From NCBI GenBank assembly GCA_025350645.1, contig JANXXM010000119.1, positions 1-33,184 on the forward strand: a stretch of 33,184 bases of DNA. The letters run 5' to 3'. Source of the DNA: Ferruginibacter sp. (GTDB lineage: Bacteria; Bacteroidota; Bacteroidia; Chitinophagales; Chitinophagaceae). This document shows, piece by piece, positions 4,860 to 12,264 of the stretch; the stretch's first letter is position 1; every line of letters begins with the position of its first letter. Under the pieces are notes generated by a model. The model did not search any database, was not told the origin of the DNA, and saw only the letters and a list, made by a program, of their open reading frames with translations. Position numbers and translations under genes: made by a program.

Positions 4860-5987
4860 CTAACTAAAATCTTTTATTTCGTTGTAAAGCGTATCTCTTT
4901 CTATGGGTTGTCGTTTTACCTGTTTTATTAGTGTTACCAGATCTTCTGTACTCATAGCAGGTGTTTGCTCTTCACTACCAGCCATGCTGTATATTTTTGT
5001 AGAATCATCTATTGTTCCATCAATATCATTCACACCAAAAGATAAAGATAGCTGTGCATTTTGCCTGCCCAGCATTGGCCAGTAAGATTTTAAGTGAGGA
5101 AAGTTATCAAGGTAAATTCTTGCAATAGCATACAGGCGCATATCTTCTGTAATGGTACTCTCCGGCACATCGCTCATATCATTATTCATATTGCGAAATT
5201 TGAGTGGAATAAAAGTTTGAAATCCTTTTGTTTTATCTTGTAATTCCCTCAGCCTGCTCATGTGGTCTACCCTGTGTTCATATTTTTCAATATGCCCGTA
5301 AAGCATAGTAGCATTGGTATGCATACCTAAATTATGTGCTGCTTCATGTATATTAAGCCACCCATCACCGGTTACTTTATCGCCTGCAATAATGTTTCTT
5401 ATTTCCGGATGAAAAATTTCTGCACCGCCGCCGGGTAATGACTGCAGGCCAGCATTTTTTAATTGCAGCATTCCTTCTTCTACAGATACTTTTGCTTTGC
5501 GAAACATATAATCTAACTCCACAGCGGTGAACCCCTTTACATGCAAGGCAGGCCTGTGTGCATGTATTTTTTGAATAAGCTCAATAAAATAAGCCATATT
5601 CATTTTTGGATGCACACCACCCACGATATGTACTTCTGTTATTGGCTTATCATCATAAGTTTTTACAATATCCAGCATTTGGTCTATACTAAGTTCCCAT
5701 CCTTCTTCTTTGTGTGCATATAATCGGGAATATGCACAAAATTTACAACTGAACACACAAACATTTGTAGGCTCAATATGAAAATTTCTATTGAAATAGG
5801 TTTTATTGCCATGTAGTTTTTCCCTTACATGGTTTGCTAATGCACCAACAAAAGGAAGATCAGCTTTTTCAAAAAGGAGCAGGCATTCTTCGTTGGTAAT
5901 TCTTGTGGCATTTTTTATTTTGTGAGCAATATTTTTTAGGGAAGCATCGGTAGTAAAATCTATTATAGTATCTATTGAAGTACTCAT
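4860..5987 (-). CDS. mqnE: Aminofutalosine synthase MqnE (radical SAM)
   Basis: The 375-aa protein carries the radical SAM motif C77-x3-C81-x2-C84 (NVCVFSCKFCAYS). Family signatures are HIVGGVHP, SLPGGGAEIFHPEIR, TNATMLYGHIE and RVDHMSRLRELQDKTKGFQ. SLPGGGAEIF together with NATMLYGHIE favours MqnE over its relative MqnC. The enzyme adds a SAM-derived adenosyl group to the chorismate-derived enolpyruvyl substrate and forms aminofutalosine, an early step of the futalosine route to menaquinone. Length is normal. A TAnnTTTG match lies 18 bases upstream of the start. It has no pathway neighbours here, so the other mqn genes must lie elsewhere. Confidence 0.93.
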   Translation of the reverse strand: MSTSIDTIIDFTTDASLKNIAHKIKNATRITNEECLLLFEKADLPFVGALANHVREKLHGNKTYFNRNFHIEPTNVCVFSCKFCAYSRLYAHKEEGWELSIDQMLDIVKTYDDKPITEVHIVGGVHPKMNMAYFIELIQKIHAHRPALHVKGFTAVELDYMFRKAKVSVEEGMLQLKNAGLQSLPGGGAEIFHPEIRNIIAGDKVTGDGWLNIHEAAHNLGMHTNATMLYGHIEKYEHRVDHMSRLRELQDKTKGFQTFIPLKFRNMNNDMSDVPESTITEDMRLYAIARIYLDNFPHLKSYWPMLGRQNAQLSLSFGVNDIDGTIDDSTKIYSMAGSEEQTPAMSTEDLVTLIKQVKRQPIERDTLYNEIKDFS

Positions 5988-6558: not shown

Positions 6559-7872
6559 ATGGCTAACGAAAACGAGTCAGCAATACCCTGCTGCCCAAAT
6601 CTTATAAAAGACGATCATTGTGATGTAATTAATTTTAGCAGAGTGCTCACCTACCCTGCCGGGCTTGCTACCAACAGGCAACCCGTAAATGTAGAAGTAA
6701 TACTGCATTTTAAATTTACAAGATGTACGCTTGGCCTCACGCTTGGCGACCCTGCATACAGTACCACCGTACTTCCTGGCGAAAAAGTAAAACTTTCTAC
6801 TACTGATAGAAAGAGTCGATTTACGTATGACAGCGAAACAAAATTAAGCTACCGCAGCGAGCAGATTTCTGAAGAGCAGTATTTTATGACTGCCACTCAA
6901 AAATATATGGCAGATGCATCCGCATCCCAATCCGGCAATGCAGAAAGTTCTTCTGAAGGGCATTGGGATTTTCATGGCGATGCAGGTGGAAGTATTAACC
7001 CATTTAGCTTAAGTGCAAGCGCAAGTACCAATGCAAAAGGTAATCATAACAGTCATTCTGTTTCCGATTATTTAAACCAGCAAAAATCGCATGTGGAAAG
7101 TAGTGCTTCGCAGGCAGTAAGTGCTACACATAAAGCACACTCCGTATCCATAGGGGAAGTAAGCACACGCACGCATATACAAGGCGAATCCGAAGATCAT
7201 TTTGAAGCAAGTAGCCGCGAGTTTACCAATTATAATAAATGCCATGCGGTTACTTACCTATTTTACCGGCTTAATAAAAAACAAAAAATATCGTTTGAAC
7301 TTGTAGCTATTGAAAGAAGAGTGCTGGATGCCAATGCTCCTATTGGCGGGGTATTACAACCTGGTGCAGCAAAATTACCCATAGCACTTGTACCGCAGGA
7401 TATTCCTGCAACCGCAGTTTTAAAAAGAAGCACTGTGAATGCTGTGGGTATATCTGCCAATGCAAATCTGGATACTTCATCATTATTATCTGCCAACCTG
7501 AGAACTGCAAATACAGACAGATTAGGAACGGCTTTTAACCCTAACCAAAATGCAGGTACCGCACTGGATGGAGATACAAGGGCAAAAGCTTTAAAAGAAG
7601 TAGATAGCCAATTAATGGCTACCGGGCTTATAGATAAAGAAGGAAAAGTTTCTAAAGAAACAAAATTAAAAATTGATTTTCAAATGGAATTTTCTTTACC
7701 TACACCCGGTATCATCGTAAAAGGATGCCTGGATGACTGCGATGTATGTGAGCCCGTTTTAAAAGAGAGAATGCAACTGGAAAATGATCTGCTTCGCAAA
7801 CAAATTGAACTGCTGGAAAAATCGCAGGAGTACAGATGTTGCCCGCCTGCACCAGTTTTTGAAGAGGCATAA
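6559..7872 (+). CDS. Unassigned cysteine-containing protein with His/Ser/Ala-rich centre (437 aa)
   Basis: I do not recognise a named family. The N-terminus has C11-C12 and C21 (CCPNLIKDDHC). A beta-rich segment follows (about 43-110) with TLGDPAYSTTVLPGEKV and TTDRKSRFTYDSETK. Residues 120-200 are rich in Ser, Ala, Gly and His, including a SASAS-like stretch. A conserved-looking block SEDHFEASSREFTNYNKCHA spans 211-230. The C-terminal part holds a cysteine knuckle C390-x3-C394-x2-C397, a short coiled-coil-like helix (399-423) and C427-C428. There is no signal peptide or membrane segment. It is the first of four same-strand genes with gaps of 31, 23 and 11 bases, so an operon is likely. The flexible centre plus coiled coil suggests self-assembly, which is inference only. 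Confidence 0.85.
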   Translation: MANENESAIPCCPNLIKDDHCDVINFSRVLTYPAGLATNRQPVNVEVILHFKFTRCTLGLTLGDPAYSTTVLPGEKVKLSTTDRKSRFTYDSETKLSYRSEQISEEQYFMTATQKYMADASASQSGNAESSSEGHWDFHGDAGGSINPFSLSASASTNAKGNHNSHSVSDYLNQQKSHVESSASQAVSATHKAHSVSIGEVSTRTHIQGESEDHFEASSREFTNYNKCHAVTYLFYRLNKKQKISFELVAIERRVLDANAPIGGVLQPGAAKLPIALVPQDIPATAVLKRSTVNAVGISANANLDTSSLLSANLRTANTDRLGTAFNPNQNAGTALDGDTRAKALKEVDSQLMATGLIDKEGKVSKETKLKIDFQMEFSLPTPGIIVKGCLDDCDVCEPVLKERMQLENDLLRKQIELLEKSQEYRCCPPAPVFEEA

Positions 7873-7903
7873 AATATTGATAAAATAAGTTTTACTAAAA
7901 ATT

Positions 7904-10246
7904 ATGAAAACAAATAAAAAAATAATAATGGAAAATTTAAAAAGAATTTCTTTAATGGTAGAATATGAGCAGCCATTGAAAGAAGAAATAGCGCTCAGAG
8001 GATTCTTGTTTCTCTGCAATGGTATTTTTTTACAAACCCAGGTGGTGAAAGAAAATATGCTCCAATTTGATTTTAGTGATAATAATAAACCGGCAATAAA
8101 AAATGAAGACAGTTCTGTAATAACAGAAAATGAACCGGATATTATTACCTCAAAGCAATTGAGGATATTTATTGCACCAGCTACGGATAAAAGAATTTTA
8201 AACGTAACAACTATTGAAGAACTGGAAAATTTTAAATCTTATGAAGCTGTATTGAATACAGAACGGGAAGGTAATTTTTCTATTCTACCTATTCCAAATA
8301 TAGTTTCACAGTTCTGGCCATTTTGCCATTGCAGGGTTACGGGTAAAGTTTCTAAATGGAATCTTGTTGGTAACCATTGGCAAGATCAGGCGGTATGCAG
8401 GGCAAGGGTAAACATTTGTGAGGTAGATACAATACGGTACTGGATTTACAAGATTCCGGATTTTATAATTGCTAAAATTCCAAAGCTAATTTTAGATCCG
8501 AAAGAGATCATAAAATTACCAATCCCCATCCCCGACCCACCACCATTTTTAAGAAGAGGAACTATTGAACGAAATACCGGTACGTTAAATATTTTTAAAA
8601 CAGCCAATGCAGATGATGCTGTTATGGCGCACGCAGCTAAATTACCGGAAATAGGATTTGAGATAAGACAACATTTAGCTACAGGAAATATAAATCTGAT
8701 AAGAGAAGCTATCATAAATAACTATGCCATATTGCATCCCTGGTTTTGTTTGTGGCCATGGACCTGGCCATACTTTTATAGACTTACTACCTTAAAAGTA
8801 GTTTACACAGATGCTGCCGGCCGTTTTGATACACAAGTATCTTATAATTGTTTCGGAGACATGCCAGACATCTACATTTGGGTAGAATATTTAATAAACG
8901 GCACATGGGAAACAGTATACAGACCGGCTATACCTTGCGATACCCGATGGAACTATGCATGCGGCACAAACATACCGATACATATTACAGACCCACGTGT
9001 GCCGGTAAACTGTTGCTGCGATTGTCATTTACCCGGAGAACTGGTGTGGGTAAGGAGTGTAGGGCACACAAGTGTATCCCACATTAAACAGGAATCATTT
9101 TTAAAAGCACCTGTAAACCAAACCGTGATGTATGACAGGATAGGACTTACAGATGCAGGAGCCAGTAATGACCCATCGTACCTTCCTGTACTTAATGGCG
9201 ATTATATAAGACCATTTGGCGGCAGCCCAGTTTTAAATATGGGTTTTGGCAGTAGTCTTCCCAATACAAATACTTTTTATTACCGCTGGAGTTACCGGCA
9301 AAAAACCAATGCACAACTTGTAAATGTATCGGATAATTATAAGCCATTATTACCCATCTATGGCGAGGTAAACAAAGGTTATCAGTATGAATATGTGGAT
9401 ATAAACGGAGATACCCAATCTGCACCAAACTCTGTGCGGCTGGGGCCAAACCTTGTTGGAGGAAATGATAACCTGTACATCATTCCGCCAGAACGCCCCA
9501 ACATGGCGCCTTTTAATACACCAGAGGCAAGCCCGGACTGGCACGAACCCACTGATTTTATGAATAGCATCAGTTTTAATTCTGCCACTTTAAAAAACAC
9601 GGTTTTAAATACTGAGGGTAAAGATGGGTTATATGAATTTAAATTAGAATTATTTAACCAGGCAGGAAATTTAATAAGTGCCGTACCAAGAAATACTTTT
9701 AAAGTACCAAAATTTGGTGATGCATCTTTAAGTGAAAATGCACCGGACGCTTTACTCGAAAATGAAACAGCTTTTACTGCAAGTGCATTTAATATTTTAA
9801 TGAGAGTAGACAATGCAAAATGCGAAGGAGAAATTTACACGATTAAAGTGGATGGTAACCCCGCATCGCTCAATTGTTGTGGTTTTGCAGCGTATAAAAA
9901 GGGAAGTGTAGAATCAGACTTAGAGGTTACTTTTAAAGCCAGTCATGAAAACGATTTTGCTGTTTTTAATTTTGGTGTGGTAAAAGGAACTTGTGGCGAT
10001 GTACCTGTAGCCGACGCAAGTGCGATGGTTATAGAGAGTGATATTGTACATGGTTATGCACTCAGCGGCAGTATTTACGATAAACATTTTACACCGGCAG
10101 ATTTATTGGGAGATTGTTATGCTGCTGGCACAGGAAAAGCGGCATTTGCAGAAAGTTTGCATGTAGCTGCCATGGCTACAGATGGTTATAGCCGGCTTAG
10201 TGGCAACGATGCGGGAGGCATTGCAGCATTTGCATTAGAACCATAA
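7904..10246 (+). CDS. Unassigned large multi-domain protein with cysteine clusters (780 aa)
   Basis: I do not recognise a named family. The ATG at 7904 is used, but an internal ATG at 7928 (MENLKRISLMVEYEQ) is an equally good start. A segment starting C141-H-C143 (CHCRVTGKVSKW) and continuing DQAVCRARVNICEVDTIRYW resembles a transthyretin-like or carboxypeptidase-regulatory beta-sandwich. A proline-rich stretch follows (IPIPDPPPF), then a striking tryptophan-rich patch at 278-293 (HPWFCLWPWTWPYFYR). A cluster C370-C371-C372-x-C374-H375 (NCCCDCHLPGE) and C658-C659 occur later. The rest is beta-rich with no signal peptide or membrane segment. It probably works with the 437-aa protein upstream. 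It could be structural or adhesive; the sequence does not decide. Confidence 0.85.
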   Translation: MKTNKKIIMENLKRISLMVEYEQPLKEEIALRGFLFLCNGIFLQTQVVKENMLQFDFSDNNKPAIKNEDSSVITENEPDIITSKQLRIFIAPATDKRILNVTTIEELENFKSYEAVLNTEREGNFSILPIPNIVSQFWPFCHCRVTGKVSKWNLVGNHWQDQAVCRARVNICEVDTIRYWIYKIPDFIIAKIPKLILDPKEIIKLPIPIPDPPPFLRRGTIERNTGTLNIFKTANADDAVMAHAAKLPEIGFEIRQHLATGNINLIREAIINNYAILHPWFCLWPWTWPYFYRLTTLKVVYTDAAGRFDTQVSYNCFGDMPDIYIWVEYLINGTWETVYRPAIPCDTRWNYACGTNIPIHITDPRVPVNCCCDCHLPGELVWVRSVGHTSVSHIKQESFLKAPVNQTVMYDRIGLTDAGASNDPSYLPVLNGDYIRPFGGSPVLNMGFGSSLPNTNTFYYRWSYRQKTNAQLVNVSDNYKPLLPIYGEVNKGYQYEYVDINGDTQSAPNSVRLGPNLVGGNDNLYIIPPERPNMAPFNTPEASPDWHEPTDFMNSISFNSATLKNTVLNTEGKDGLYEFKLELFNQAGNLISAVPRNTFKVPKFGDASLSENAPDALLENETAFTASAFNILMRVDNAKCEGEIYTIKVDGNPASLNCCGFAAYKKGSVESDLEVTFKASHENDFAVFNFGVVKGTCGDVPVADASAMVIESDIVHGYALSGSIYDKHFTPADLLGDCYAAGTGKAAFAESLHVAAMATDGYSRLSGNDAGGIAAFALEP

Positions 10247-10269
10247 AGAATATTTTAAAATAAAAATAA

Positions 10270-10581
10270 ATGAGTGCATTCACTTTCATATTAATATCAT
10301 TAGCATGCTGGCGAATCACTCATTTATTTTCTAAAGAAGATGGCCCTTTTGACATTATTTTTATACTAAGAAGAAAAGCTGGCGCAGGTTTTTTTGGAAG
10401 CCTGCTGGATTGCTTTTATTGTGTGAGCGTATGGGCTGCTCTGCCTTTTGGTATATGGCAGGGAGAAAGTTATTGGCAAAAATTATTATACTGGGTAGCC
10501 ATATCTGGTGCTGCGTGTTTATTAGAACAGGCAACAACTAAATATAAAAATGAAGATCCCCCCTTTTATAAAGAAGATTAA
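10270..10581 (+). CDS. DUF1360-like small membrane protein (103 aa)
   Basis: The N-terminal pattern CWRITHLFSKEDGPFDIIF, followed by a glycine-rich turn and LLDCFYCVSVWAA, fits the DUF1360 family as I remember it (a W-R-x-T start, an E-D-G-P motif, then a C-x2-C motif leading into a W-rich helix). Two or three hydrophobic helices are visible (about 3-15, 45-62 and 68-86), so it is probably an inner-membrane protein. The C-terminus is charged. Its function is unknown. It lies 23 bases after the 780-aa gene and 11 before the 86-aa gene, and may be the membrane anchor of the cluster. Confidence 0.8.
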   Translation: MSAFTFILISLACWRITHLFSKEDGPFDIIFILRRKAGAGFFGSLLDCFYCVSVWAALPFGIWQGESYWQKLLYWVAISGAACLLEQATTKYKNEDPPFYKED

Positions 10582-10592
10582 ATATAAAATTT

Positions 10593-10853
10593 ATGTGCAA
10601 TTGTGGTAATAAAAGAACCGGCTTTGCAATGCAGCAAAACTACGGGCTTGCAGATACTGTTGCAATAAATGCTTCTCCAAAAAAAATGTGGGCAGATGTG
10701 TCATTTATTTACACTGGAAAAACTGCTTTAACCGTAAGGGGAAATATAACGGGAAAAACATATCGTTTTGAGATGCAGGACAGCAGGCAGTTGGTAGATT
10801 ACAGAGATGCCTCCGCCTTAATGAAAATCATTGTACTTAGGAAAATAGTTTAA
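10593..10853 (+). CDS. Small hypothetical protein with N-terminal CNCG motif (86 aa)
   Basis: The product begins MCNCGNKRTGFAMQQ, placing two cysteines at residues 2 and 4. The remainder (VSFIYTGKTALTVRGNITGKTYRFEM, then DSRQLVDYRDASALMKI) reads as a small beta-barrel-like domain, comparable to a Tudor or SH3-like fold. No signal peptide or membrane segment is present. It is the last gene of the four-gene run. I do not recognise a named family. A role as a small adaptor or structural subunit is possible but is only inference. Confidence 0.75.
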   Translation: MCNCGNKRTGFAMQQNYGLADTVAINASPKKMWADVSFIYTGKTALTVRGNITGKTYRFEMQDSRQLVDYRDASALMKIIVLRKIV

Positions 10854-11313: not shown

Positions 11314-12264
11314 ATGCAACCATTTTCTATAGTTATACACGGCGGTGCCGGTACTATTTTAAAAGAAGATATGACTCCTGATCTTGAAAAAGCTTACCAG
11401 CAGGCTCTGGATGAAGCTCTGGAAGCGGGTTATGGCGTTTTAGAACAAGGCGGGTGCGCTGTAAATGCAGTAAAGGCAGCCATTGTAGTGCTGGAAGATA
11501 ATTTACTTTTTAATGCAGGAAGAGGATCAGTATTTACAAAAAAAGGGGTGCAGGAAATGGATGCTGCTATAATGGATGGTAAAAACAGAGAAGCAGGGGC
11601 TGTTGCAGCCGTTAGAAATGTAAGAAACCCCATAGAACTTGCTGCTGAAGTAATGCACAACAGTAATCATGTTTTCTTAAGCGGAAAAGGTGCAAATGAT
11701 TTTGCCATAAAACAGGGAATAAAATTAGAGCCCGATGAATTTTTCTTTTCTCAGTTTAGGTATGATCAGTGGAAAGCTATGCGGGATAGTGATAATTATT
11801 CGCTGGACCATACACACCAGGGACTGGAAGAATTAATGAAAGATAAAAAATTTGGAACTGTAGGCTGTGCGGCTTGCGATATGGAAGGAAACATTGCCGC
11901 AGGTACCAGTACTGGCGGAATGACCAATAAAAAATATGGGAGAATAGGTGACAGCCCAATTTTAGGTGCAGGTACTTACGCACACAATACCACTTGCGCT
12001 ATAAGCTGTACGGGCCATGGCGAACCTTTTATAAAAGCAGTAGCAGCGTACGATGTAGCAGCACACATGGAGTATAAAGGAATGAGCCTGCACGACGCAA
12101 TGCACGAAGTAGTACATACAAAATTAATAGAACTTAACGGCGAGGGAGGAATGATTGGCGTAGATGCAAAAGGAAATGTAGCAATGATGTTTAATAGCGC
12201 AGGTATGTACCGGGCTATGAAAAACAGCAGCGGAGAAAAGTTTATAGGTATTTACAGAGACTAA
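11314..12264 (+). CDS. Isoaspartyl peptidase/L-asparaginase (Ntn hydrolase)
   Basis: The 316-aa protein begins MQPFSIVIHGGAGTI, typical of plant-type asparaginases such as IaaA/EcAIII. The autocleavage site is FG-T182 (KKFGTVGCAACD): the new N-terminal threonine T182 is the nucleophile, and the substrate-binding GTSTGG follows. Further matches are NAGRGSVFT and CTGHGEPFIK. The precursor splits into alpha and beta chains and removes beta-aspartyl linkages or hydrolyses asparagine. There is no signal peptide, so it is cytoplasmic. It has its own promoter and SD-like site, and ispD follows after 30 bases, perhaps in the same transcript. Confidence 0.95.
   Translation: MQPFSIVIHGGAGTILKEDMTPDLEKAYQQALDEALEAGYGVLEQGGCAVNAVKAAIVVLEDNLLFNAGRGSVFTKKGVQEMDAAIMDGKNREAGAVAAVRNVRNPIELAAEVMHNSNHVFLSGKGANDFAIKQGIKLEPDEFFFSQFRYDQWKAMRDSDNYSLDHTHQGLEELMKDKKFGTVGCAACDMEGNIAAGTSTGGMTNKKYGRIGDSPILGAGTYAHNTTCAISCTGHGEPFIKAVAAYDVAAHMEYKGMSLHDAMHEVVHTKLIELNGEGGMIGVDAKGNVAMMFNSAGMYRAMKNSSGEKFIGIYRD

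What the first reader, a model, noticed from the sequence alone, without database searches (positions are those of the whole stretch)
6559..10853. Four-gene cluster of unassigned cysteine-bearing proteins: candidate new system
Four same-strand genes with gaps of 31, 23 and 11 bases encode a 437-aa protein with a His/Ser/Ala-rich centre and coiled-coil tail, a 780-aa beta-rich protein with a tryptophan-rich patch, a DUF1360-like membrane protein and an 86-aa CNCG protein. All have closely spaced cysteines (C11-C12, C390-x3-C394-x2-C397; C141-H-C143, C370-C371-C372-x-C374; LLDCFYC; C2-x-C4). None of the first, second or fourth can be assigned. Shared cysteine chemistry suggests metal binding or disulfide-linked assembly of a cytoplasmic or exported particle. 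The function is inference.
Basis: partly seen in the sequence, partly recalled or inferred. Interest (0 to 1): 0.82.

Follow-up and report, generated by a model that had tools for sequence, protein, structure and literature searches.

The report
Conserved four-gene system with swappable subunit
Four neighbouring bacterial genes of unknown function form a real, recurring unit found in distant bacterial groups; the first gene stays nearly constant while the big second gene is exchanged for very different versions, as in systems that change what they recognise.

Summary
Four same-strand genes (6559-10853; gaps 31, 23, 11) encode A (437 aa), B (780), C (DUF1360, 103) and D (86). Pfam, PHROGs and NCBIfam assign only C. 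It is a conserved unit: of the 80 A loci kept from genome contigs, 26 carry A, B, C and D (Bacteroidota, Pseudomonadota), 11 part of the set, 43 A alone. Record titles of the 80 span about ten phyla; A keeps ten cysteines (44-46 of 46 rows).

New here: B is a swapped slot. Of 99 locus pairs with A at least 70% identical, 48 have B proteins without a significant BLAST match; in the 43 of these with C and D on both sides, C and D always match. Two Nitrospira bins are 90-91% identical in DNA through the flank and A, then differ over B.

The parts
6559..7872 (+). Gene A, 437 aa: constant core protein; long-strand beta domain, Ser/Ala/Gly/His-rich insert about 85-225, helical tail ending in RCCP, ten conserved cysteines
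   Evidence: ORF; 142 relatives in genome contigs, best 80 kept; Cys kept in 44-46 of 46; AlphaFold2 mean pLDDT 68; no family assigned
7904..10246 (+). Gene B, 780 aa: exchangeable slot protein (type B1); transthyretin-like domain with helical insert (about 140-365), PDPPPF at 210-215, Ig-like sandwiches (about 378-780)
10270..10581 (+). Gene C, 103 aa: DUF1360 protein, probably membrane-embedded, with invariant EDGP and DCFxC motifs
   Evidence: Pfam PF07098 E 5e-6 above cut-off, phrog_781 E 1e-6, alignment of 18; some phage relatives are annotated 'membrane protein'; no topology predictor was run
10593..10853 (+). Gene D, 86 aa: small protein with N-terminal CxC or CC and a conserved YTGxTxLxVxG...G..YRF...VDYRDA core
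   Evidence: alignment of 19 members; no family assigned

Best explanation
A, B, C and D are one functional unit that has spread between lineages. A is a constant partner with an elongated beta scaffold and a low-charge Ser/Gly/Ala-rich insert whose tip is suited to membrane contact. B is a large binding protein (transthyretin-like domain, a proline-rich PDPxPF segment, several Ig-like domains) that decides specificity and is therefore replaced wholesale between close relatives. C holds the B-D module at the membrane or helps it across, and D, partly co-inherited with B, assists folding or attachment. A and B would work at or beyond the cell envelope: B binds a surface, A inserts into or coats it. 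Shown: conserved operon, wide spread, constant A, exchanged B, and on trees C and D clustered by B type while A is not. Inferred: envelope location, binding by B, membrane action by A, roles of C and D.
For: Co-occurrence: 26 of 80 A loci have all four, 8 AB, 1 ABC, 1 ABD, 1 ACD. In 345 sampled Bacteroidota genomes A is in 9, D in 7, both in 4. Exchange: among pairs from 31 chosen loci, 99 have A at least 70% identical and B in both; in 48 the B proteins have no BLAST match at E 1e-5, in 11 more the match is significant but under 35% identity or 60% coverage; in the 43 of the 48 pairs with C and D in both, C and D match in all 43. B1 and B2 profiles hardly align (probability 12.9). Nitrospira L050/L051 DNA is 90-91% identical to just past A, then has no match over B; L024/L026 and L019/L022 share flanks, A and parts of C/D at DNA level but not B. 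B type needs 5 changes on the A tree (130 and 119 of 500 shuffles as low), 3 on the C tree (4 and 3 of 500) and 3 on the D tree (1 of 500). A PDPxP-like pattern is in 33 of 35 B proteins against 14 of 120 other long ORFs (in L084 it lies elsewhere and is probably chance). Fold hints: about 16 of 19 VIA rows for A are beta-pore-forming proteins, several of them repeats of one protein; VIA rows for B are largely adhesive or secreted Ig/TTR proteins.
Confidence: 0.3

Rival explanations
1. Surface or extracellular adhesion/matrix complex without membrane attack: A is a disulfide-stabilised scaffold, B a variable adhesin, C and D anchor and assembly factors; exchange of B reflects escape from phage or grazers.
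For: B's structural neighbours include the biofilm scaffold RbmA and WxL-interacting protein; an A-like region lies in a 1553-aa protein with an OmpA domain (L135); B swapping.
Against: No signal peptide seen by eye; A's long Ser/Gly-rich insert is unusual for a plain scaffold; no anchoring motif noticed.
Confidence: 0.27
2. Cytoplasmic metal-binding or disulfide-linked particle: clustered cysteines bind zinc or iron and A assembles through its helical tail.
For: Ten cysteines of A are kept in 44-46 of 46 rows, C keeps CxxC, D keeps an N-terminal Cys; the apparent absence of signal peptides fits the cytoplasm.
Against: B's cysteines are mostly not conserved; Ig/TTR domains and swapping suit binding rather than a housekeeping particle; a probable membrane protein belongs to the set.
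Confidence: 0.17
3. A phage- or mobile-element-derived morphogenesis module, domesticated.
For: DUF1360 relatives occur in actinobacterial phages (33 records at E up to 1, best listed 6e-4; phrog_781).
Against: No relative of A in phages or, with two short patterns each, viral contigs; no PHROG for A or B; D's phage matches are chance level.
Confidence: 0.07
4. Unrelated genes that share a neighbourhood by descent.
For: A is often alone; C-D also occurs with another large protein (L128).
Against: Same four together in 26 loci of two phyla, in two gene orders and at different chromosomal sites; A and D share 4 genomes where 0.2 would be expected from 9 and 7 of 345 (own arithmetic, relatedness not corrected).
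Confidence: 0.06

Closest known systems
DUF1360 (PF07098) proteins
   Same: Gene C reaches the family's cut-off
   Different: Function of DUF1360 is unknown (Pfam title); one paper of the held library names it (listing only)
Aerolysin-like and Toxin_10 beta-pore-forming proteins
   Same: Elongated long-strand sheet with a Ser/Thr/Gly-rich insert between strands; most VIA rows for A are such proteins
   Different: Scores at noise level, no sequence relation in Pfam or PDB; the insert of about 140 residues is partly helical and, from recall, much longer than theirs; ten conserved cysteines; no secretion signal seen by eye
Carboxypeptidase-regulatory / transthyretin-like domain proteins
   Same: B's first part models as a TTR domain; B relative L131 reaches CarboxypepD_reg weakly (E 6.8e-4, below cut-off)
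   Different: Long helical insert, conserved PDPxPF segment, Ig tail, and position in an exchanged operon slot
Extracellular contractile injection systems (eCIS)
   Same: Both occur in environmental bacteria; BTAD-type regulators sit near A in two loci and near eCIS according to PMC8213781 (passages)
   Different: The eCIS marker Pvc16_N is in 10 of 38 genomes searched (36 of them with A, 9 of these positive) and not in the window's genome

Membership tests
DUF1360 (PF07098) | Score over the curated Pfam cut-off | tested here: met
   26.9 bits against 21
Aerolysin-like / Toxin_10 pore-forming proteins | Profile match to a known family | tested here: not met
   None of the families listed for 46 A proteins at E 0.05 is of this kind
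Aerolysin-like / Toxin_10 pore-forming proteins | Same fold at significant score | tested here: inconclusive
Aerolysin-like / Toxin_10 pore-forming proteins | Oligomeric pore in membranes | not testable with these tools
   needs protein and liposomes
Transthyretin-like / carboxypeptidase-regulatory domain (part of B) | Pfam cut-off | tested here: not met
   Window B has no such match; relative L131 E 6.8e-4, below cut-off
Transthyretin-like / carboxypeptidase-regulatory domain (part of B) | Fold | tested here: inconclusive
Extracellular contractile injection system | Tail terminator Pvc16_N in the genome | tested here: not met
   0 matches in the window's genome

The most novel reading that the evidence does not exclude
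A founds a new family of membrane-acting proteins, spread over about ten bacterial phyla and shared with an amoeba giant virus, whose target is set by an interchangeable Ig/TTR protein B that is replaced as a module with its membrane helper C and adapter D: a bipartite, retargetable surface weapon or anti-predator system unlike any described.
Probability: 0.18. Interest if true: 0.88.

Novelty: categorically new. Interest (0 to 1): 0.64.

Why it matters
Three protein families with no entry in the libraries searched form a recurring unit with a clear constant/variable division. Such a division usually marks recognition: of prey, predators, rivals or phages. It gives a direct experimental handle (compare B types, see what each recognises) on genes that are now unnamed. 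'Categorically new' here means that no known system could be named to file it under; it is not a claim that its chemistry is new.

Tried and rejected
Phage or virus origin: A in viral contigs (two short patterns each) and phages: none; plasmids: one partial match in a long Nostoc protein. PDB sequence searches: nothing credible; the best two for the D profile (E 3e-4) are designed TIM barrels over 19 positions. Pfam on the members of A and B alignments: only scattered weak matches (best 0.0012, TIG_2 in 6 of 46 A proteins). eCIS cargo: rejected as a requirement. Toxin with a co-swapped immunity gene: mean C and D identity does not follow B type, although trees of C and D do so partly: weakened, not excluded. 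Promoters: sigma-70-like sites no more than in shuffles (16 against 19.6); the Bacteroidota -33/-7 pattern (recalled) gave only 5-of-6 matches upstream of A. A fusion of A-like and TTR domains in the 1259-aa protein of L017 looked plausible by eye but Pfam found nothing: not claimed. Other families near A: kinase/regulator-like (15 loci) and ABC-ATPase-like (9 loci) groups, named by eye, are generic; the rest mostly reflect the shared nadB...ispG site. Paper searches (listings) showed no title or abstract start about A, B or D; of PMC8213781 passages were read. 'Not described' rests on these searches and on Pfam, PHROGs, NCBIfam and PDB only.
Full report
The observation. The window holds four same-strand genes at 6559-7872 (A, 437 aa), 7904-10246 (B, 780), 10270-10581 (C, 103) and 10593-10853 (D, 86), with gaps of 31, 23 and 11 bases. 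Scanning 46 A and 30 B proteins against Pfam gave only scattered weak matches, and PDB sequence searches with profiles of all four gave nothing credible.

A conserved unit. In two relatives of the window's genome the same four lie in the same order. A profile of A found 142 relatives in genome contigs, of which the best 80 were kept. By record titles they come from about ten phyla: Bacteroidota, Pseudomonadota, Chloroflexota, Acidobacteriota, Nitrospirota, Actinomycetota, Verrucomicrobiota, Calditrichota, KSB1 and Chlorobi/Ignavibacteria. A six-frame profile scan of these 80 loci found A, B, C and D in 26, A and B in 8, ABC, ABD and ACD in one each, and A alone in 43; some of the last are at contig ends and a few of the 26 are near-copies (L019 and L023 are 96% identical in DNA). 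The 26 are Bacteroidota and Pseudomonadota; 21 have the order A-B-C-D and 5 (L038, L058, L069, L080, L083) B-C-D-A. A Chlorobi locus has A-C-D and a Nitrospira locus A-B-C. The set also stands apart from A in genomes that hold an A elsewhere: B-C-D in a KSB1 bin (L112) and C-D-B in an Acidobacteria bin (L118). In a sample of 345 Bacteroidota genomes A was in 9 (one match weak), D in 7 and both in 4. D without a standard A was in 3: beside B in G082 and G338, and in G123 behind C and another large protein. In 25 genomes with A, 22 of them without B beside A, B was found in 8 and D in 4. So A is the widest part and can do without the rest, and B-C-D is a module of its own that often sits beside it. 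Phylum labels need 14 changes on the A tree where 8 would be the least, which suggests transfer without proving it.

The swapped slot. Profiles of the types B1 and B2 scarcely align (probability 12.9, E 0.002, C-terminal part only), although both occur in Chitinophagaceae; B1 aligns better with a proteobacterial type (96.9). Among pairs from 31 chosen loci with A at least 70% identical and B in both, 59 of 99 have B under 35% identity or under 60% coverage; of these, 48 have no BLAST match at E 1e-5 and 11 a significant but poor one. In the 43 of the 48 pairs that have C and D on both sides, C and D match significantly in all 43. Two Nitrospira bins (L050, L051) have 90-91% identical DNA across the upstream flank and A, ending just past A; their A proteins are 96% identical and their B proteins do not align. 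These are bins, so a chimeric contig cannot be excluded for this pair alone. At the site between nadB and ispG (names by NCBIfam), L024/L026 and L019/L022 align in DNA over both flanks, A and parts of C/D but not over B. On trees of nine such loci B type needs 2 changes for nadB and 3 for ispG, at least 2 forced by well-supported branches, about what shuffled labels give. On trees of 18 Bacteroidota clusters B type needs 5 changes for A (130 and 119 of 500 shuffles as low), but 3 for C (4 and 3) and 3 for D (1), so C and D partly travel with B while A does not. Mean pair identities show little of this (C 61.8 against 58.6, p 0.018; D 49.6 against 49.4); pairs are not independent. The changes cannot tell replacement from loss of alternative copies.

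What B types keep. Members of each main type carry a Pro-rich stretch of the form PxPxPDPxPF after the transthyretin-like part: 33 of 35 B proteins match a loose pattern somewhere, against 14 of 120 other ORFs over 600 aa. In L084 the match lies elsewhere and is probably chance, L045 and L048 have none, and types recruited by the B profile are not independent evidence. The slot can hold still other proteins: beside A in Dechloromonas (L060) a protein with a GEVED match below cut-off, and in G123, at the nadB...ispG-like site without A, a 620-aa protein with a TTR-52 match just above cut-off, followed by C and D.

Cysteines. Ten cysteines of A are kept in 44-46 of 46 rows, C keeps C48 and C51 in all 18 rows, D keeps C4 in at least 90% of 19, B keeps only C659 and nearly C372 across 30. 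This supports metal binding or disulfides in A, but not one chemistry shared by all four. No signal peptide is apparent by eye on A or B; no predictor was run.

Mechanism. The constant/variable division argues that B sets specificity and A does a common job. With the domain make-up of B, the probable membrane protein C and the weak fold hints for A, the favoured reading is a two-part envelope or secreted system: B binds, A inserts into or coats the bound surface, C and D assemble or anchor B. Confidence is 0.3 for this and about 0.9 for the statement that the four form a conserved unit with an exchanged B. An adhesion or matrix complex without membrane action is nearly as likely; a cytoplasmic metal particle is less so.

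Novelty. No known system could be named for it with the libraries and papers searched (papers as listings, except passages of PMC8213781). Most subscription papers were not searchable.

Noticed in passing
model of A (window 6559-7872) against BFVD: A giant virus of amoebae, Yasminevirus, encodes a clear Foldseek relative of A (A0A5K0U6Q4, E 1.4e-16, 22% identity), although viral-contig scans found none.
   Followed up: partly
L018 (G243), about 8590-8745: Between nadB-like and ispG-like genes, where relatives carry A-B-C-D, only a decayed N-terminal remnant of A is left (47% over 32 residues, then stops).
   Followed up: partly
L013, L037, L038, downstream of A: A small papain-like protease with a lipoprotein-like start (Peptidase_C70, E 2.5e-8 in L013) and a second lipoprotein-like gene follow A in three Chitinophagaceae loci.
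   Followed up: partly
L045, L046, L048, L076, L095, upstream of A: A large ATPase/regulator family sits near A in Thiomonas, a gammaproteobacterium and a Thermoflexales bin; of the three scanned, L076 and L095 match BTAD and L046 only AAA-type models.
   Followed up: partly
L017 7419-11198, L099 9167-13183, L135 5716-10377: An A-like domain occurs inside long proteins of 1259, 1338 and 1553 aa; the last also has an OmpA domain.
   Followed up: partly
L128 6854-9427 (G123): At a nadB...ispG-like site a 620-aa protein with a TTR-52 match precedes C and D, and no A is present there.
   Followed up: partly
L107/L109 (G425): A is broken in one Bacteroidota genome: two overlapping matches, one with a TGA inside.
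   Followed up: no
window 4860-5987 and 11314-12264: In the window the cluster lies between mqnE (NCBIfam, above cut-off) and a beta-aspartyl-peptidase-like gene (below cut-off), not at the nadB...ispG site of its relatives.
   Followed up: no
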